From the IMG/VR virus record IMGVR_UViG_3300033550_000038, positions 1 to 21,058 of that record: 21,058 bases of DNA, one strand, 5' to 3'. The notes under the pieces were generated by a model that was given only the letters and a program-made list of their open reading frames with translations, was not told the DNA's origin and did not search any database. Source of the DNA: a virus. Shown piece after piece: positions 11,498-21,058 of the stretch; the stretch's first letter is position 1; each line of letters begins with the position of its first letter. The translations under genes and the position numbers were made by a program.

Positions 11498-11829
11498 AGA
11501 GCAAGCAGGAACTCATCGACCGGGTGCTGGTGGAGCTTGGCGTCATAGGCGCCGGGCAAACCGCCGCTGCCGAGGACGTGGCGCTGATCACCTCCGAGAT
11601 TGAGCCGGTCATGAGTGACCTCGCGACCCGCAATATCTACTCCTGGGGCGACCCGGACGAATACGACGAGGACGCATTCATTCACCTTGCCAAGATCACG
11701 GCAAACTCGCTGGCACGCGCCTATGGCATCGAGCCGGATGACGGCAAGCGCCTGTATGCGGAGAGCCGATTGAGGCTCCTGCAAACTGTGGTGCTGTCCG
11801 GCCAGAACCAGAGCGTCGAGTATTACTAA
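11494..11829 (+). CDS. Head-tail connector, P22 gp4-like
   Basis: The 111-aa helical product starts MKSKQELIDRVLVELGVIGA and contains IEPVMSDLATRNIYSWGDPD and HLAKITANSLARAYGIEPDD. Helix content, size and position directly before a gp10-like protein match the P22 gp4 / lambda gpW-gp6-type connector fold that extends the portal. P22 gp4 is longer (166 aa) and has lytic activity in its extra part; here only the core is present. Translation is coupled to the preceding gene by an ATGA overlap. The assignment rests on fold pattern and context, not on strong sequence identity. Confidence 0.7.
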   Translation: MKSKQELIDRVLVELGVIGAGQTAAAEDVALITSEIEPVMSDLATRNIYSWGDPDEYDEDAFIHLAKITANSLARAYGIEPDDGKRLYAESRLRLLQTVVLSGQNQSVEYY

Positions 11830-13248
11830 GTGCCGGAAATCACGTTTCCCACCAGCACGGCGCCTGGCGTCAACCCCACCGAGAATGGTGGCCGGCTGAT
11901 CAACTGCTACGCTGAGGCAGCGCCTCCTGGCTCTCGCAGCAAGGTGATCTGGCGCCGGGCCCCAGGGCTCACCCACGCATTCAGCACCACAGAGACAGAA
12001 GCGCGCGGTTCGCTGCTTGTCGGATCGGTGCTCTACATCATTTCTGGCGACAAGGCCTATTCAGTCACCTCGAGCTACGTGGTTACGGAGCTGACCGGCA
12101 CGGTCGGAGGTTCCGGCCCGGTGTTCATGGCCCGCAACATGGCCGCGACGCCGGATGTGCTCATCGTCCATTCGGCCGGCATGTCGCAGATCAACACTGG
12201 CGCTGCGTCCGTTTCGGACTTCAGCGACGGGGATCTGCCGGCGGTTAACTCCATCTGCTGGATCGATGGCTACTTCATCGTCACGTCGGCGGCGGGCAAA
12301 GCATACCAGTCCGGCATCAACGCCACGACGTTCTCATCGGTGGACTTCACTACGGCGGAAGCCGATCCAGATGGGCTATATCGCGCGGTTGCCCTGGGCA
12401 GCGATCTGCTGCTGATGGGGGCGGCCTCCATCGAGTTCTACGGCAATGCCGGCAATGCGACTGGCTTTGCCTTCTCTCGCGGTCCTGTAATCCCCGTAGG
12501 CCTCAAAGGGCCATATGCGGTTGCCGGCTTCGAAACCGGGTTCTCTGACAACCTGATCTATGTCGCCAACGACAACACCGTTCGACAGCAGGAAGGCTAT
12601 ACGCCGACCAAGATTTCGACTCCAGAGCTGGAGCGCTTTATTGAAGCCGTGACGGACGTGACGACGCTCGAGGCTTCGGTGTTCGTGGCCGCTGGCCATG
12701 CCTATTGGGTACTCACCGGGCCCGACTGGACCTGGGTCTACGACGTATCCACGGGCAACTGGCACGAGCGCGCGTCCTATGGTGAGGAACGCTGGCGCGG
12801 CCGGTTTGGCGTCAACGCCTGGGACAAGTGGTTTGTCTTCGACCGCGACAGCGAAAAGGTCTTTCAGGTCAGCGCGACAGTTAAGCGCGAGGACGATCAG
12901 CCCCTACTGTGGGAACTGCACTCGGTACAGGCGCACCGGTTCCCCGGCAAAGCCTTCATCAAGCGCGCCAGCTTCGACTTCGTGACGGGCGTAGGTGTCG
13001 ACGCAGGTATCGACCCGATCGAGAGCGACCCGGTGGTTCGCATCTCGTGGTCTTTCGATGGCGGGCGCACGTTCGGGCAGCCGCTAACCCGTGAGTTGGG
13101 CACGCAGGGGCAGGACGTGCCGATCGATATCTTCCGGTGCGGTGTCACCAATCGCCGCGGCGTGCAGTGGCGGCTGCAGTGCAGCGACCCCATCGAACTA
13201 GCCTTCATCGGCGGCGCGATGGACGTTGAGGAGCGCAAGGCCTCATGA
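11830..13248 (+). CDS. Packaged DNA stabilisation / tail hub protein, P22 gp10-like
   Basis: The 472-aa product begins PEITFPTSTAPGVNPTENGG and RLINCYAEAAPPGS, close to the start of the P22 gp10 family (Phage_stabilise). The rest is a beta-propeller-like series of short strands (GSLLVGSVLYIISGDKAYSV, WTWVYDVSTGNWHERASYGE), ending with a beta domain (WSFDGGRTFGQPL). In P22, gp10 forms the tail hub under gp4 and prevents packaged DNA from leaking. The start is a GTG directly after the connector stop, with only a weak ribosome binding site, so it is probably coupled to that gene. Its own stop overlaps the next start (ATGA at 13245-13248). Confidence 0.88.
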   Translation: MPEITFPTSTAPGVNPTENGGRLINCYAEAAPPGSRSKVIWRRAPGLTHAFSTTETEARGSLLVGSVLYIISGDKAYSVTSSYVVTELTGTVGGSGPVFMARNMAATPDVLIVHSAGMSQINTGAASVSDFSDGDLPAVNSICWIDGYFIVTSAAGKAYQSGINATTFSSVDFTTAEADPDGLYRAVALGSDLLLMGAASIEFYGNAGNATGFAFSRGPVIPVGLKGPYAVAGFETGFSDNLIYVANDNTVRQQEGYTPTKISTPELERFIEAVTDVTTLEASVFVAAGHAYWVLTGPDWTWVYDVSTGNWHERASYGEERWRGRFGVNAWDKWFVFDRDSEKVFQVSATVKREDDQPLLWELHSVQAHRFPGKAFIKRASFDFVTGVGVDAGIDPIESDPVVRISWSFDGGRTFGQPLTRELGTQGQDVPIDIFRCGVTNRRGVQWRLQCSDPIELAFIGGAMDVEERKAS

Positions 13249-13418
13249 CCATCGAACAGCCACGCAAGCTGCCGCCGCCGGCTCAGCGCCTTATCAACGC
13301 TGATGGGACCATGAACGAGTACTGGCGCAAGTATTTCGAAGAGTGGGACACGCGCCTGCGCCAGCTCATCGACGCCTCCAACGATCACGAAACACGCATC
13401 ACCGCACTGGAGCCCTGA
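13245..13418 (+). CDS. Small coiled-coil protein (57 aa) of the tail module
   Basis: The product starts MTIEQPRKLPPPAQRLINAD, followed by a helical part with NEYWRKYFEEWDTRL and heptad-like RITALEP at the end. It begins in an ATGA overlap with the gp10-like gene and ends two bases before the next start. Small proteins with a 'PPP' segment and a short trimeric coiled coil occur at this place in several podophages (memory). P22 has its tail needle gene (gp26) here, but this protein is far too short to be a needle. A structural tail accessory role is likely but unproven. Confidence 0.65.
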   Translation: MTIEQPRKLPPPAQRLINADGTMNEYWRKYFEEWDTRLRQLIDASNDHETRITALEP

Positions 13419-13420
13419 CC

Positions 13421-14035
13421 ATGGCATCTTGGCTAGACAATCTGCTGGGCCTGAACCAGGGCGATCCGCTGCTGGACGCTTCCAAGCGGAATACCGGGCT
13501 CATCAACCAGCTCGATACGACTGGCACGGGCTACCTGAACCAGGCCAAGGACATTACCGGGGACTATCTCAATCTCGGCAAGTCCGGCGCCAATGCCTAC
13601 GCCAATGCGACCGGCGTCAACGGGGCGGCAGGTAATGCAGAGGCTTTGGCGAACTTCCAGGCGGGGCCCGGCTACCAGTTCGGCCTTGACCAGGGGCTAC
13701 AAGCCCTGCAGCGCACGGCCTCGTCGCAGGGGCGGCTGCAGTCGGGCAATACCGATATCGACCTGCTGCAGTACGGCGTGAAGGCCGCAAACGACGAGTG
13801 GGGCAACTATGTCGATCGGCTCGGCGGCTACAACGATATGTACGGCGCCGGAGTAGGGGCGGCGACCAAATCGCTTGGCGACCTCACCAGCTTCAAGTCG
13901 GGTATCACGTCTGACCTGATCAGCGCGAACAACCAGCGCGCCGAGGGCGAGTCCACCAACAACGCTGGGCTCGGCAACCTGTTCGGCAACGTGCTTGGCA
14001 TCGGCGGCAAACTGCTGGGCTTTGGGGGCTTCTGA
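13421..14035 (+). CDS. Internal virion / DNA ejection protein (204 aa), gp7/gp14-like
   Basis: The product starts MASWLDNLLGLNQGDPLLDA. It is rich in G, N, A, Q and Y with few charges, contains GPGYQFGLDQGLQALQRTAS and SSQGRLQSGNTDIDLLQYG, and ends in a glycine-rich amphipathic helix (LFGNVLGIGGKLLGFGGF). This is the usual look of the first ejection protein in P22-like (gp7) and T7-like (gp14) phages, which inserts in the outer membrane. An in-frame start at 13343 exists but would overlap the 57-aa gene; the ATG at 13421 has GGAG 8 bases upstream and is preferred. Its stop shares bases with the next start (TGATG). Confidence 0.75.
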   Translation: MASWLDNLLGLNQGDPLLDASKRNTGLINQLDTTGTGYLNQAKDITGDYLNLGKSGANAYANATGVNGAAGNAEALANFQAGPGYQFGLDQGLQALQRTASSQGRLQSGNTDIDLLQYGVKAANDEWGNYVDRLGGYNDMYGAGVGAATKSLGDLTSFKSGITSDLISANNQRAEGESTNNAGLGNLFGNVLGIGGKLLGFGGF

Positions 14036-15663
14036 TGGCTTACTCGTGGCGTCCGATTGAGCTTCGCGACCCGCTGGGCGTTGGCATCGACAAGTTCGAT
14101 GCTGGCCTCACCTGGGGGCGGAACGAGCGTTTCGAGAAGGACGCGCCGGAGACGTTCGGCAAGTACCTCGATAGCCTCAGCAACGCCACTACCTCGCAGG
14201 CACTGGTTCCCGGCTCGGGTGTCACCACCGACGCACTGGTGAGCGGTTCCCATAATGCCGCGACAGCCGCGCAGGATCCGTTGCTGACGGCATTCTTTGC
14301 CAACACGCGGCGCTCGGAAAGCGGCGGTAACGACAACGCCAAAAACCCCAATTCCAGCGCCACCGGCCGTTACCAGTTCCTTGAGGGGACATGGGCCGAT
14401 CTGGCGCAGCGTCATCCTGAGCTGGGGTTGACCCCAGACGGCCGCACCGACCCTGCCCAGCAGGAACGGGCCATGAAGGTGTTCACACAGGAGAACGCCG
14501 GAACGCTTGGCAAGTCGGGTGTTCCGGTCAATCCCGGTACGCTCTACGCTGCCCACTTCCTCGGCGCCGGCGGGGCCGCGAAGGTGCTGGCTGGCGACCC
14601 AAACAGCCCTGTATCGGCATATGTCGACCCGGCAGTGGTGCAGGCCAACCCGCAGCTCGCGGACATGACCGTGGCTCAGTTCGCTCAGTGGGCCAGTGAG
14701 AAGGGCGGCAATGCTGGCGGGGGGTATCAGGCTCCGATGGCTCCGCAGCCGCAGGCGGCGCCACAGCCACAGCAGGGGCAGGGTGGAGCGCCTGGCATGC
14801 CGCCGCGCGAAGTCATGCTGGAATTGTTCCGCAACCCGAATACCCGGCCCATCGCCATAGAGCTTGCCAAGGCCAACATGGAAGGTCGCAGCGCCAAGCC
14901 AGTTGTGATCAACGACCGGCTGGTAAACCCGTACACGGGCCAGGTGATTGGCGACTACAGCGACACGACGGCCAATGGTGGCGCCGGTGATCTCGGGCTG
15001 AACCCACAGTATGGCGTCGATGCGGAAGGCAACCCAGTCATTCTCCAGATCGGCAAGAACGGCAAGGCTGTGCAGACCGCATTGCCTGAAGGGGTGAAAC
15101 TGTCCAAAGAGCCGATCAAGATCGATGCCGGTACGCATTGGGTGCTGCTGGATCCGATCACGCGCCAGCCCGTTGGACAGGTGGAAAAGAACAACGAAGA
15201 GGCCGCCTTCCAAAGTGGCTTCGGCACCGCCGCTGGCAAAGCGGCCGCTGAGCGTATCGACGCGCTACCCGGCGCGATCGCCAAAGCCGACAATATGATG
15301 GCGACCATCGACGGAATCCTGAACGATCCCGCCCTCGACGTGTCCACAGGTTGGCTCTCGTGGATGCAGCAAGTGCCAGGCACTGATCAGTATCGTTTTG
15401 GGCAGCGCGCTCTTCAGCTACAGGGGCAGTCGTTTCTGCAGGCTTTCGAAAGTCTCAAGGGTGGCGGACAGATTACCGAAGTGGAGGGCGCCAAGGCAAC
15501 GCAGGCTATCGGGCGGCTCAGCACGGCGCAATCCGCAGAGGACTATCGGGATGCTCTGGACGAACTCAAAGGCATCATCGCCGCGGCGAAACAGCGAACC
15601 CAAGCCGCGGCTGGTGGTTCGCAGGGCGGCGCTGGCTCCTTCACAGTTCTTGGAGTCGAGTAA
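14035..15663 (+). CDS. Virion-borne lytic transglycosylase / ejection protein (542 aa)
   Basis: Residues about 85-220 form a lysozyme-like domain. RRSESGGNDN places the catalytic glutamate at E95, and GRYQF at 111-115 is the family's substrate-cleft motif. TLYAAHFLGAGGAAKVL with DMTVAQFAQWASEKGG completes the fold. After a Q/P/A-rich linker (about 230-255) comes a long mixed region, and the C-terminal 150 residues are helical. The enzyme would cut peptidoglycan during infection so the ejected proteins and DNA can cross the wall, as T7 gp16 does. It is translationally linked to the 204-aa gene (TGATG) and is followed without a gap by the 597-aa gene. A bacterial housekeeping transglycosylase is excluded by the context and the lack of a signal peptide. 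Confidence 0.88.
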   Translation: MAYSWRPIELRDPLGVGIDKFDAGLTWGRNERFEKDAPETFGKYLDSLSNATTSQALVPGSGVTTDALVSGSHNAATAAQDPLLTAFFANTRRSESGGNDNAKNPNSSATGRYQFLEGTWADLAQRHPELGLTPDGRTDPAQQERAMKVFTQENAGTLGKSGVPVNPGTLYAAHFLGAGGAAKVLAGDPNSPVSAYVDPAVVQANPQLADMTVAQFAQWASEKGGNAGGGYQAPMAPQPQAAPQPQQGQGGAPGMPPREVMLELFRNPNTRPIAIELAKANMEGRSAKPVVINDRLVNPYTGQVIGDYSDTTANGGAGDLGLNPQYGVDAEGNPVILQIGKNGKAVQTALPEGVKLSKEPIKIDAGTHWVLLDPITRQPVGQVEKNNEEAAFQSGFGTAAGKAAAERIDALPGAIAKADNMMATIDGILNDPALDVSTGWLSWMQQVPGTDQYRFGQRALQLQGQSFLQAFESLKGGGQITEVEGAKATQAIGRLSTAQSAEDYRDALDELKGIIAAAKQRTQAAAGGSQGGAGSFTVLGVE

Positions 15664-17457
15664 ATGGCCGTCTTCACAATCCAGGCCCCGGATGGCCGCA
15701 AGATCAAGATCGACGCAGATGACGAGGCAACGGCGATCCGGGGTGCGCAGGAATGGACGGCCGCCAACCCGAAGGCTATCTCACTTCAAGGCAAGGTAGA
15801 GCCAAAGGGTTCGTCTGGCGAGGCGTCGACCAATGTTCAGGGCTTGGATGCTCAGGGCGGCTACGACTTCGCGCTTGACCGGGTACAGCGGAACTATCTG
15901 CCGGACGTGCCAAAGGAAAAGGTCGCAGAGATGTATGCGCCCTACGATGCCGGGAAGCTCTTGCAGGCCGGTGGCACATTGGGCTTCGCTGACGAGGCAG
16001 CTGGTGCCGGCAACGCGGTTGGTGAGGCTCTGAGAGGCAAGGACTTCGGCCAGGCCTTCAATGACTATTCCCAACTGGAGAGGGCTCGAGCAGACCTTGG
16101 CCGCGAGCAACAGGGTGCATTGGGTACTGCCGCGGAGATTGCAGGCTCGCTGCTCTCTGGCCGCCCAGATCTCGCCGCAGGCCGAGCCGCCGGGCTTATC
16201 CCAACCGTTATCGATGGGGCAAAGGGCGGCGCTGTTAGCGGCGGGATCTATGGGTTTGGCTCCGCTGATGGAGACTTGGTCAAGCGCGCTCACGGTGCGT
16301 CTGAAGGGGCGCTCATCGGCGCGGGGATCGGCGCGGCCGTCCCTGTCGCCGTAGAGGGCGTCAAGCGCGTCATTTCACCGCTTCGCGCGCCACAAGCAAA
16401 GACCAACGCCGCAAATGTTCTCAGGAACGAGGGCGTAGAACTTACTGCGGGGCAGGCCACTGGCAGCAAGGGCCTTCAGTACCGAGAAGCTGAGTTGGGT
16501 GGATCGGCGGCAGAGAATTTTGCGGAGCGGCAGGCCGATCAGTTTACGTCGGCAGCCCTGCGGCGCGCTCAGATTAATGCGGAGCGCGCTACTCCAGACG
16601 TGATCGACCAGGCGTATACGCAGATCGGGCAGCAGATCGATGGGCTAAGCTCTCGCAATACCCTCGAAAGCGACTCGCGCTTTGCGGGGGAACTCGGCCA
16701 AGTGTGGCGTGACTATGCATCGCTGGTGAACCCGTCGCAACGAGCGCCAATAGTGCAACAGACTATTGTGGATATTACCGACGCGCTGAGGAACGGTGGC
16801 GGGAGGCTGTCTGGCCGCGCCTATCAGTCGCTGCGTAGTCGGCTGGAGCGGGCCGCTCGCGGTTCAAAAGACCCGGAACTGACCATGACCCTACGGGATA
16901 TCAATTCGGCGCTCGATGGGGCGATGGAACGCACTATCGGACGGACCAACCCAGCAGATCTCGGGGCGTGGCAAGAAGTCCGCCGGTCGTACCGCAACAT
17001 GCTGGTGATTGAGGACGCCGTTGGGCGGGCCGGGGAGAAGGCCGCTGACGGCATCATCACCCCCGCCAACCTTCGAAGTGCGGCAAAGAAGCAGGGACGA
17101 CGCAGCTTTTCCCGCGGACGCAATGACTTTGCTGCGCTGGCGAACGCCGGGGTGTCGGCCATGACCCCGCTTCCCAACAGCGGAACGGCTGGACGGCTCG
17201 GTGCTAAGTTGTTTGTCCCGGCTGGCGCCGCGACCGGCGCGACCGTTGGCGGCATGGCGGCTGGGCCGTTGGGCGCCGGAGTGGGGGCCGCAGTAGGTGC
17301 AGCGGTGCCGTGGGCTGCGGGTAGGGCGGTATTGTCTGGACCGGGCCGGGCGTATCTCGCAAACCAGTTGGCGTCAGCGCCGGTCGATGAACTAACGGCT
17401 TTGTTGGGTAGCGGTGTGGCCAGAGGCGTACAGCCAGTACTACCGTCTAGTCGATAG
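15664..17457 (+). CDS. Large ejection / internal virion protein (597 aa), membrane-active
   Basis: The product starts MAVFTIQAPDGRKIKIDADD, a short beta motif that I recall from the N-termini of several alphaproteobacterial phage virion proteins. Two glycine-zipper segments look membrane-active: about 214-232 (GALIGAGIGAAVPVAVEGV) and about 516-555 (GATVGGMAAGPLGAGVGAAV). Between them is a long helical, charged region (RNEGVELTAGQATGSKGLQY onward). This suits the pore-forming ejection proteins gp16/gp20 of P22 or gp15/gp16 of T7, which cross the inner membrane. GGAG lies 8 bases before the ATG. It ends tail-to-tail with a minus-strand gene, overlapping it by 18 bases. Confidence 0.75.
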   Translation: MAVFTIQAPDGRKIKIDADDEATAIRGAQEWTAANPKAISLQGKVEPKGSSGEASTNVQGLDAQGGYDFALDRVQRNYLPDVPKEKVAEMYAPYDAGKLLQAGGTLGFADEAAGAGNAVGEALRGKDFGQAFNDYSQLERARADLGREQQGALGTAAEIAGSLLSGRPDLAAGRAAGLIPTVIDGAKGGAVSGGIYGFGSADGDLVKRAHGASEGALIGAGIGAAVPVAVEGVKRVISPLRAPQAKTNAANVLRNEGVELTAGQATGSKGLQYREAELGGSAAENFAERQADQFTSAALRRAQINAERATPDVIDQAYTQIGQQIDGLSSRNTLESDSRFAGELGQVWRDYASLVNPSQRAPIVQQTIVDITDALRNGGGRLSGRAYQSLRSRLERAARGSKDPELTMTLRDINSALDGAMERTIGRTNPADLGAWQEVRRSYRNMLVIEDAVGRAGEKAADGIITPANLRSAAKKQGRRSFSRGRNDFAALANAGVSAMTPLPNSGTAGRLGAKLFVPAGAATGATVGGMAAGPLGAGVGAAVGAAVPWAAGRAVLSGPGRAYLANQLASAPVDELTALLGSGVARGVQPVLPSSR

Positions 17458-17637
17458 ACCCGCCTCTATCCAGTCGAACACTCCGTGCGCCGTTGGCGAA
17501 TAAACGTAACGGATAAAGAGCGCCAGCAAGAACACAAGAACGATGGCTGCAAGCCCCACCTTCCAGCGAGGATGCAGAAGCGGTTCGCGTTTCCCGTTCT
17601 CGGTGTATTCGTGCGGCTCTAGATCCAAATCAGGCAT
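17440..17637 (-). CDS. Antisense small membrane protein (65 aa)
   Basis: The product has a charged N-terminal part of about 25 residues (MPDLDLEPHEYTENGKREPL), one membrane span at about 27-45 (KVGLAAIVLVFLLALFIRYV), and a short tail ending GLSTRR. Its ATG overlaps the stop of the 43-aa gene by 8 bases, so the two form a minus-strand two-gene unit. The own ribosome binding site is weak (AAGAAG), which supports coupling. It could be a holin-like or exclusion protein; I recognise no family. Position between ejection and tail genes is like the immI / sieA accessory site of P22. Confidence 0.65.
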   Translation of the reverse strand: MPDLDLEPHEYTENGKREPLLHPRWKVGLAAIVLVFLLALFIRYVYSPTAHGVFDWIEAGLSTRR

Positions 17638-17761
17638 CGGGCTTCTTTTTACGCCTTAGCCGCCAAACGTCAAACATCGCATAGGCGATGATCAGGGCGC
17701 AGCACCCAGCGACCCAGAGCAGCATATCGAGTATGGGCGGTCCGACCGGGCCGTCAATCAT
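17630..17761 (-). CDS. Antisense tiny membrane protein (43 aa)
   Basis: The product has a short N-terminus (MIDGPVGPPI), one membrane span (about 11-31, LDMLLWVAGCCALIIAYAMF with two adjacent cysteines) and a strongly basic tail (RLRRKKKPDA). The positive-inside rule predicts the C-terminus in the cytoplasm. AGGAGGG at 17776-17770 is 8 bases before the ATG, an excellent ribosome binding site that sets this start against longer in-frame alternatives running into the plus-strand tail gene. It is the first gene of the minus-strand pair. No family was recognised. Confidence 0.65.
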   Translation of the reverse strand: MIDGPVGPPILDMLLWVAGCCALIIAYAMFDVWRLRRKKKPDA

Positions 17762-17851
17762 CGCTAAATCCCTCCTGGTCTCCTCCAGCACACAGAAGTA
17801 ATCGGCCGTTGCTTCGCCCGCAAGGCGCTGTCGGCCGTTTGGAGCATGTAA
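17762..17851. promoter_or_regulatory. Divergent intergenic region between membrane-gene pair and tail gene
   Basis: These 90 bases separate two divergent starts and hold both ribosome binding sites: AGGAGGG at 17776-17770 for the minus pair and GGAG about 7 bases before the tail gene. TCGGCCGTT is repeated at 17802-17810 and 17831-17839. A promoter for the minus pair is expected here or a little into the tail gene, but no clear -35/-10 pair was found. Confidence 0.4.
17802..17839. repeat. 9-bp direct repeat pair, possible operator
   Basis: TCGGCCGTT occurs at 17802-17810 and again at 17831-17839, with starts 29 bases apart (close to three helical turns). Each holds the palindrome CGGCCG. The location between divergent genes makes a regulator-binding pair plausible, but chance is possible in GC-rich DNA. 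Confidence 0.4.
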
Positions 17852-18862
17852 ATGGCAACAACTTGGCCCGGCAGCCGTATTCCGTTCATTGATGAGAACG
17901 GCGACCCAATGGTGGGTGCAAAGCTCTATTTCTACGACAGCGAGACGACAACCCCGCAGGTTGTCTACTCTGACGCGTCGCTTAGCACTGCGATTGATCA
18001 GCCTATCTTGGCCAATGCCCGCGGTGCTTTCCCAATAATCTTCCTGAACCCGTCGCCGGGAAGTTACCGCCAAAAACTGCTCGAAGCGGACGATACGTTG
18101 GTTTTCGACGATGACAATGTCGATGTGCCGCAGTCGGCTACCTTTGTGCCCCCCGACGCTGGCGACACCTCCATCGACCTGCTGGCCAGAACCGGCGACC
18201 TGAAGCCGTACTATGGCACGTCAGCCCCCTCTGGCTGGGTGCGCGCCGCTGGCCGAACGATCGGGTCAGCAGCCTCCGGAGCGACTGAGCGGGCAAACGA
18301 CGATACCGAGGACCTATTCCTTCATCTTTGGGCGGTCGATGCCACCCTGAGCGTCAGCGGAGGGCGCGGCGGCTCAGCAGCAGGCGACTGGGCTGCGAAC
18401 AAGACGATTGCTCTCCCGGACTTCCGCGAGCGGACATTCGTTGGGCTCGCCACGATGGGCAACACCGACGCCGGGTTGATTGCAGACAGCCTCATGGACG
18501 GAGGCGAAACATCCTCTGACCTTGGCGCAACAGCGGGCGTAGATGACGTAGCGCTGAGTGAGGCACAGCTCCCGGCTCACTTGCACGGGAATGGCACCCT
18601 CAAGATGCCAAACCACGGCCACCCGGTGCGCTATAGCCCATCGAACGAACAGGAAACCCGAACGGAGGGCGGCCTCGCCTTGGTGTCGAATATCGACACG
18701 AACTATGCTGCGTACACAGGCACCCCCACCAATACAGCCGGCGAGCAGATCGGCGGGTCTGGAGAAATCGCGCTGACCGGCGCCATGGCGACGACAGGCT
18801 CCGGCACGGCGCATACCAATATGCAGCCGTCTCAGTTCGTTCTGATCCTAATCAAGCTCTGA
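17852..18862 (+). CDS. Tail fibre with collar domain (336 aa)
   Basis: The N-terminal 95 residues (WPGSRIPFIDENGDPMVGAK, YSDASLSTAIDQPILANARG) resemble the attachment domain found at the start of many podophage fibres. Residues about 110-205 form a phage tail collar domain: GDLKPYYGTSAPSGWVRAAG near the start and LPDFRERTFVGLATMGN near its end. After a repeat-poor linker it finishes with AHTNMQPSQFVLILIKL, the typical ending of collar proteins. It would form a trimeric fibre contacting the host surface. GGAG lies 7 bases before the ATG. It starts the tail appendage unit and is divergent from the minus-strand pair. Confidence 0.82.
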   Translation: MATTWPGSRIPFIDENGDPMVGAKLYFYDSETTTPQVVYSDASLSTAIDQPILANARGAFPIIFLNPSPGSYRQKLLEADDTLVFDDDNVDVPQSATFVPPDAGDTSIDLLARTGDLKPYYGTSAPSGWVRAAGRTIGSAASGATERANDDTEDLFLHLWAVDATLSVSGGRGGSAAGDWAANKTIALPDFRERTFVGLATMGNTDAGLIADSLMDGGETSSDLGATAGVDDVALSEAQLPAHLHGNGTLKMPNHGHPVRYSPSNEQETRTEGGLALVSNIDTNYAAYTGTPTNTAGEQIGGSGEIALTGAMATTGSGTAHTNMQPSQFVLILIKL

Positions 18863-20501: not shown

Positions 20502-21058
20502 ATGAACCCGAACGTGCCAGCAGGCGCGGCGATCTTGCTCGACTTCATCGGATCGATCGAAGCCCCAAAAGGCTACGGAACGATCTTCGCCAACAAGCAG
20601 GACAAGCTGCCGAAGCCGCTCACTGAGATGACGCTGGACGAAGTGCAGGCAGCGCAAGCCCTCTGGTCCAAGCGCAATGGCTCATCTGCCGCCGGCCGCT
20701 ACCAATTCATGCGGGCCACGCTCAAGGGCCTGATCGCCGAGATGGGGCTCCGCGGTTCCCAGCACATGACGCCCGACCTGCAAGACCTGATGGGCTACCA
20801 TCTACTGAAGCGTCGCGGCTACCTGAACTTCGTTGCCGGCGAATTGTCGCTCAAGGGCTTCGCGCTCGGGCTGGCAAAGGAGTGGGCCAGCCTTCCGGTG
20901 CTGTCCACAGTGCAGGGCGCGCATCGTCAACTGTCACGCGGCGACAGTTACTATGCCGGCGACAAGCTGAACAAGTCGCTGACGAAGGCGGGCGATTTCG
21001 AAGCCGTGCTGTCCGAGGCGCTGAACGCAGCGGGCAGGAAGGGCGCACAGCCCGCCCC
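20502..21058 (+). CDS. Endolysin, lambda R-type lytic transglycosylase (3'-partial)
   Basis: The frame is open to the window end; 185 codons are visible. It carries FIGSIEAPKGYG with probable catalytic E20, SSAAGRYQF at 61-69 and KEWASLP at 126-132. The same order (E, then GAGRYQ, then WASLP) occurs in the phage lambda endolysin R, which cuts peptidoglycan by transglycosylation. There is no signal peptide, so export would need a holin, probably encoded downstream outside the window. GGAG lies 7 bases before the ATG, and it follows the fibre gene by 49 bases. After residue about 150 the sequence (AGDKLNKSLTKAGDFEAVLS) extends beyond the core domain. Sure of lysozyme class, less of exact family. 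Confidence 0.82.
   Translation, partial: MNPNVPAGAAILLDFIGSIEAPKGYGTIFANKQDKLPKPLTEMTLDEVQAAQALWSKRNGSSAAGRYQFMRATLKGLIAEMGLRGSQHMTPDLQDLMGYHLLKRRGYLNFVAGELSLKGFALGLAKEWASLPVLSTVQGAHRQLSRGDSYYAGDKLNKSLTKAGDFEAVLSEALNAAGRKGAQPA

What the first reader, a model, noticed from the sequence alone, without database searches (positions are those of the whole stretch)
17440..17761. Pair of tiny antisense membrane genes at the P22 immI-like site
Two minus-strand genes (43 and 65 aa, 8-base overlap, one membrane span each) sit between the last ejection gene and the tail genes. The first has a near-perfect AGGAGGG site 8 bases before its start. Everything around them is on the plus strand. In P22 the corresponding gap between gene 16 and gene 9 holds sieA and the mnt/arc/ant immI region, expressed apart from late genes. 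A prophage-expressed superinfection-exclusion or host-modifying pair, or an unusual holin pair, is plausible. I recognise no family, so this is the best candidate for an undescribed system.
Basis: partly seen in the sequence, partly recalled or inferred. Interest (0 to 1): 0.7.

Follow-up and report, generated by a model that had tools for sequence, protein, structure and literature searches.

The report
Backwards membrane genes guarding phage entry
Next to the gene for its DNA-injection protein, this phage carries two tiny membrane-protein genes running backwards; one belongs to a previously unnamed family that sits in the same spot in many related phages, where the well-studied phage P22 keeps a gene that stops a second phage from injecting its DNA.

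Summary
Window 17630-17761(-) and 17440-17637(-) encode 43- and 65-aa one-span membrane proteins that overlap by 8 bases; none of 1000 shuffles gives such a pair. The 65-aa frame is a real gene. Its N-terminus, MPDLDLEPHEY, recurs in other (pro)phages of Devosia and unnamed hosts, with synonymous codon changes. Genome-wide profile searches blind to context recover relatives that lie antisense to, and tail-to-tail with, a gp16-like ejection gene. In seven phages the two genes' 3' ends overlap by 4-20 bp. The body of the protein varies (65-131 aa, 1-2 spans). Unrelated membrane genes fill the same slot elsewhere: a 3-span family in Devosia, small genes in cyanophage Pam5 and prophage CBW1004C-Prop1, and sieA in P22. 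The 43-aa gene has a strong ribosome-binding site but no relative; it may be variable cargo. Best explanation: a prophage-expressed exclusion locus whose inner-membrane proteins block the injection conduit of incoming related phages, as P22 SieA does, but by sequence-unrelated, much smaller proteins. Position and predicted membrane nature are shown; expression and exclusion are inferred. A holin role is unlikely.

The parts
17440..17637 (-). 65-aa one-span membrane protein with the N-terminal MPDLDLEPHEY motif (founder here of the 'DLEPHEY' family)
   Evidence: relatives antisense beside ejection genes in other (pro)phages; span at residues 27-45
17630..17761 (-). 43-aa one-span membrane protein, 8-base overlap with the next gene (ATGCCTGA), predicted N-out/C-in (RLRRKKK tail)
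   Evidence: no relative found in the fetched loci, Pfam, PHROGs, PADLOC, NCBIfam
17770..17776 (-). Shine-Dalgarno AGGAGGG, 8 bases before the 43-aa start
   Evidence: direct reading
17762..17851 (.). 90-bp gap between the two divergent starts (antisense genes and tail fibre); the antisense promoter must lie here or further into the tail gene, but none is recognisable
15664..17457 (+). gp16-like DNA-ejection protein gene; 3' end overlaps the 65-aa gene by 18 bp
   Evidence: phrog_26400 DNA ejection protein E=2.5e-26, phrog_5880
14035..15663 (+). transglycosylase-domain gene before the ejection gene; a mosaic boundary lies near base 14861
   Evidence: blastn against G004
17852..18862 (+). tail fibre/collar gene, downstream flank of the slot
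   Evidence: phrog_8763 E=2e-40
20502..21058 (+). endolysin gene, running off the contig; the lysis region is away from the finding
   Evidence: phrog_90 endolysin E=1.8e-29

Best explanation
The two genes form a prophage-expressed superinfection-exclusion locus in the slot that P22 uses for sieA. Shown: they are antisense, at least one is a real conserved gene, both are predicted membrane proteins, and the conserved one is tied in position to the gp16-like ejection gene. Inferred: they are transcribed in the lysogen from a promoter in or just beyond the 90-bp gap, and read against by late transcription after induction. The 65-aa protein sits in the inner membrane with its conserved PDLDLEPHEY end in the cytoplasm. 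There it obstructs the ejection conduit of an incoming related phage, by binding the gp16-like ejection protein or a host inner-membrane factor that it needs. The 43-aa protein is a translationally coupled partner or separate cargo.
For: Slot geometry matches P22: gene 16 ends at 13313 and sieA is 13336-13830(-). [quoted passage not shown] Whole-genome profile searches over Devosiaceae returned family members antisense beside ejection genes in G001, G002, G075 and G125; an order-level search added G122. Inspecting the slots of G135 and G105 added two more. 3' overlaps: 18, 4, 20, 7, 18, 14, 7 bp and 17 bp in G105. G003 has a second ejection-type gene with its own antisense pair, one member being a full-length relative of the 65-aa protein, so the genes follow ejection genes, not the tail fibre. 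All 12 tail-fibre-bait loci carry antisense membrane ORFs in the slot. dN/dS is below 1 for every pair tested (e.g. 0.11/0.28, 0.38/1.12). Relatives are prophages or temperate: Devosia sp. Root413D1 on a 233-kb contig; integrase in G004. Cyanophage Pam5, which has lysogeny-associated genes (PMC9382816), has an antisense pair in the slot. Family similarity tracks the ejection C-terminal 250 aa weakly (rho 0.27, p 0.018) but not the N-terminal 250 (p 0.26).
Against: No functional or expression data. No sequence similarity to SieA by hhalign for the 'DLEPHEY' or 3-span families. 65 aa with one span is far smaller than SieA (162-164 aa, three spans). No clear sigma-70 promoter for the pair. The covariation test is weak and confounded by physical linkage. 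In phiAX1 the equivalent antisense gene is soluble. The window itself shows no integrase; temperate life is inferred from relatives.
Confidence: 0.58

Rival explanations
1. A moron hotspot for general lysogenic conversion: the slot tolerates any independently transcribed antisense cargo that alters the host envelope or physiology, without a common exclusion role.
For: Variable cargo: a glycosyltransferase-like gene in G004, lipoprotein and HigA-like antitoxin genes in G122, several unrelated membrane families and decayed copies.
Against: The gene touching the ejection gene is a membrane gene in most relatives and belongs to one motif family in many of them. G003 carries such genes beside a second ejection-type gene, away from the tail fibre.
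Confidence: 0.25
2. An unusual holin or holin/antiholin pair.
For: Two tiny one-span proteins; weak, sub-threshold Pfam holin similarity of some slot proteins (L034 E=0.04, L041 E=0.3).
Against: Opposite strand to the late operon. Endolysin lies on + at 20502. In the close relative G004 the endolysin-like gene is followed on + by two small ORFs with hydrophobic spans (no PHROG match). No holin family hit above cut-off for the window proteins.
Confidence: 0.05
3. The membrane proteins regulate or protect against the phage's own ejection proteins (antisense RNA plus immunity-like protein), rather than excluding other phages.
For: Conserved tail-to-tail 3' overlap of 4-20 bp, and 131-158 bp in the long versions, allows mutual antisense control.
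Against: Synonymous variation shows selection on the protein; an antisense gene would not be made together with its late target.
Confidence: 0.08
4. The 43-aa frame is a chance ORF and only the 65-aa gene is real (compatible with the best explanation).
For: No relative of the 43-aa protein found; upstream partners differ between phages.
Against: AGGAGGG at ideal spacing, hydrophobic span, coupling overlap; 0 of 1000 shuffles give such a pair. The same ATGCCTGA overlap with an upstream gene occurs in G004.
Confidence: 0.15

Closest known systems
P22 SieA superinfection-exclusion protein (PHROG 7745)
   Same: Opposite strand, convergent with the last ejection gene, before the tail gene; predicted inner-membrane protein in a P22-like podovirus
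   Different: No detectable homology; 65 or 43 aa with one span against 162-164 aa with three; lacks the FxRYPxEAxxFNK motif; 3' ends overlap instead of a 22-bp gap
HK97 gp15, Tuc2009 Sie2009 and T4 Imm (DNA-injection blockers, as described in PMC10883804 and PMC11436027)
   Same: Phage-encoded proteins that block DNA injection; the first two are described as membrane proteins
   Different: HK97 and Tuc2009 are long-tailed and T4 has a contractile tail; sequence relation was not tested here beyond family libraries
Antisense genes 14-15 of Pseudanabaena phage Pam5 and gp54-55 of CBW1004C-Prop1
   Same: Same slot and orientation directly after the ejection-type gene; small proteins with hydrophobic spans (Pam5 14/15, CBW gp54; Pam5 14 is below the 1.6 hydropathy cut-off)
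   Different: No sequence relation seen by eye; annotated only as hypothetical, or 'putative exported protein' for gp55
P22 gene 13-type holins
   Same: Small membrane proteins of a podovirus
   Different: Those lie with the endolysin on the late strand; these do not

Membership tests
P22 SieA family | Gene on the opposite strand, convergent with the gp16 ejection gene, before the tail gene | tested here: met
   window 17440-17637(-) against 15664-17457(+); P22
P22 SieA family | Sequence homology to SieA (PHROG 7745) | tested here: not met
P22 SieA family | About 160 aa with three membrane spans | tested here: not met
   65 and 43 aa, one span each; another family in the slot of relatives (L035 etc.) has 128-139 aa and about three helices but low model confidence
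P22 SieA family | FxRYPxEAxxFNK cytoplasmic motif | tested here: not met
   absent by inspection; motif from PMC10883804
P22 SieA family | Expressed from the prophage by its own promoter | tested here: inconclusive
   only a weak consensus match inside the 43-aa gene
P22 SieA family | Blocks DNA entry by P22-like phages through gp16/gp20 | not testable with these tools
   needs plating and DNA-entry assays
Holin | Located and transcribed with endolysin in the late operon | tested here: not met
Holin | Match to a holin family above cut-off | tested here: not met
P22 immI (mnt/arc/ant) | Arc/Mnt repressors and antirepressor in the gap | tested here: not met
   394-bp gap holds only the two membrane ORFs
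Known anti-phage defence systems (PADLOC) | Match to a defence-protein model | tested here: not met
'DLEPHEY' slot family (defined here) | N-terminal M-x(0-2)-[IL]-[DE]-L-x-P-x-x-[YH] motif followed by membrane span(s), convergent with an ejection gene | tested here: met
   divergent motif variants occur (L034, L041, G105)

The most novel reading that the evidence does not exclude
P22-like temperate phages from Proteobacteria to Cyanobacteria share a tail-to-tail 'exclusion slot' behind the ejection gene, refilled again and again with unrelated small inner-membrane proteins matched to the neighbouring ejection protein. The 'DLEPHEY' family is a minimal (65-aa) exclusion protein that uses a conserved cytoplasmic N-terminal motif to jam a shared step of DNA entry.
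Probability: 0.4. Interest if true: 0.75.

Novelty: new variant of a known kind. Interest (0 to 1): 0.55.

Why it matters
How SieA interacts with very diverse ejection proteins is stated as unresolved in the P22 work (PMC10883804). A family of 65-80 aa proteins with a fixed short motif, next to ejection genes of several types, would give a much smaller system for asking which step of podovirus DNA entry is blocked. The slot also predicts where to look for unannotated exclusion genes in temperate podoviruses.

Tried and rejected
The ejection protein as bait found no relatives in viral contigs; the tail-fibre alignment worked. Phage GenBank tblastn with the 65-aa protein and with three slot proteins of relatives found nothing. 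The 43-aa protein was too short for a collection scan. AlphaFold of the 65-aa protein gave only a confident membrane helix (pLDDT 94 in residues 31-40, pTM 0.33), and the 3-span family gave a poor model (pLDDT 56), so no fold search was run. Genome hits for the motif in Prevotella and other non-Devosia genomes are unrelated proteins and were discarded, as were low-scoring hits in other genomes (G393, G315, G221, G339, G022) and in G105:C2. No Rfam element was found. Phage Fc02's overlapping exclusion genes were read as a lead and are not similar in position. A DNA-element reading of the conserved 35 bp shared with G004 was rejected because the codons differ synonymously between phages.

Full report
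Observation. The window is a 21,058-bp IMG/VR virus record of a P22-like podovirus. Two antisense frames, 43 aa (17630-17761) and 65 aa (17440-17637), lie between a gp16-like ejection gene (15664-17457, PHROG 26400) and a tail-fibre gene (17852-18862). They overlap by 8 bases (ATGCCTGA). The first has AGGAGGG 8 bases before ATG. The second overlaps the ejection gene's 3' end by 18 bp. No member of 1000 dinucleotide shuffles of the stretch reproduced a membrane ORF with a Shine-Dalgarno site followed by an adjacent or overlapping membrane ORF.

The 65-aa gene is real. A first scan found three viral contigs encoding proteins that begin MPDLDLEPH[EQ]Y, all antisense and between an ejection gene and a tail-fibre gene. 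A DNA-pattern scan added Devosia insulae and Devosia sp. Root413D1. The motif codons differ synonymously in the five distinct copies while the peptide is fixed except for E/Q. Between the window and its near relative G004, nucleotide similarity is 90.7% over window 11506-14861 and resumes at 17838. In between, the only nucleotide match is a 35-bp island (17606-17640) that is this motif.

Position. Profile searches of 136 Devosiaceae genomes, blind to context, found the family in G001 and G002 (two copies each), G075, G100 and G125, with a weak hit in G105:C2. Mapping shows an antisense, convergent ejection gene beside it in G001, G002, G075 and G125; in G002 the family member overlaps that gene, and in G001 a 3-span membrane gene lies between. 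G100 is a short contig with a 3-span copy next to it and only a partial ejection-gene match. The weak G105:C2 hit lies in a region without ejection genes and is discarded. An order-level search of 397 genomes added G122 (MPDIELEPRKH, overlap 18 bp). Inspection of the slots of G135 (MQIDLKPHEH; 86% terminase identity to the window over 64 aa) and of the G105 prophage on contig 4 (MPDLEPKTVE) added two more. 3' overlaps are 18, 4, 20, 7, 18, 14 and 7 bp in seven phages, and 131-158 bp in three phages with longer C-termini. Contig G003 carries a second such gene, with another small antisense membrane gene, between a second ejection-type gene and the tail hub. The genes therefore track ejection genes rather than the tail fibre.

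The slot in general. All 12 loci recovered with the tail-fibre bait carry antisense membrane ORFs in the slot; several loci are near-duplicates. Families include a 128-139 aa 3-span group (A4), a 189-222 aa group and an ~89-aa group. Pairwise dN/dS is below 1 in all seven comparisons. Of 12 more distant genome loci inspected, five (L046, L049, L053, L058, L059) show antisense membrane ORFs. Among named phages with the same tail hub, Pam5 has two small antisense genes there, CBW1004C-Prop1 has an 89-aa two-span antisense gene, and phiAX1 has a soluble 173-aa antisense gene followed by Arc-type repressors. Pam1, Pan3, VSN-002, VvAW1, DSL-LC05 and ctkAd229 have no antisense gene directly after the ejection genes in the stretches read; their lifestyles were not all checked. 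P22 itself has sieA there.

Mechanism. [quoted passage not shown]). The same slot, orientation, membrane nature and temperate context (integrase in G004; prophage on a 233-kb Devosia contig) make exclusion the best-supported reading. It remains inference: expression and phenotype are untested, homology to SieA is absent, and no promoter is evident. The positive-inside rule (my reading) puts the 65-aa motif in the cytoplasm. Similarity of the family correlates weakly with the ejection protein's C-terminal 250 residues (rho 0.27, p 0.018) and not with its N-terminal 250 (p 0.26); four tests were made, linkage can explain it, and it is only a hint.

Rivals. Holin: lysis genes are elsewhere on +. 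General moron hotspot: cargo upstream of the family gene varies, so this remains the main rival and may hold for the 43-aa gene. Chance frame: excluded for the 65-aa gene, still possible for the 43-aa one.

Novelty. The position and probable role follow a known kind (SieA). The protein family matches no Pfam, PHROGs, NCBIfam or PADLOC model above cut-off and appears new.

Noticed in passing
L003:7016-8008(+) (contig IMGVR_UViG_3300028809_000094): In the nearest relative, a glycosyltransferase-family-2-like gene (weak Pfam, E about 0.007) takes the place of the 43-aa gene and overlaps the MPDLDLEPHEY gene by the same ATGCCTGA.
   Followed up: partly
L002:13991-15084(+): A second antisense small-membrane pair beside another ejection-type gene, including a full-length relative of the 65-aa protein.
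   Followed up: partly
L118:9367-10004(-): Antisense slot of the G122 prophage also holds a lipoprotein-like gene and a HigA-like antitoxin gene.
   Followed up: no
L040:2979-4153(-), L041:4523-5595(-), L036:5123-5383(-): Duplicated, truncated or remnant copies of the 3-span family in the slot, suggesting rapid turnover.
   Followed up: no
L128:17429-19927: Acetobacter phage phiAX1 has a P22-immI-like order after its ejection gene: antisense gene, Arc-type repressors on both strands, KilA-N gene.
   Followed up: no
window 14861-17837: Mosaic block against contig G004: the transglycosylase C-terminal half, ejection gene and antisense genes are replaced together, between 91% and 72% identical flanks.
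   Followed up: partly
L004:6102-6596(-): Hexapeptide-repeat acetyltransferase-like gene directly after the tail fibre of contig IMGVR_UViG_3300037418_002050, possibly surface modification (name from my reading).
   Followed up: no
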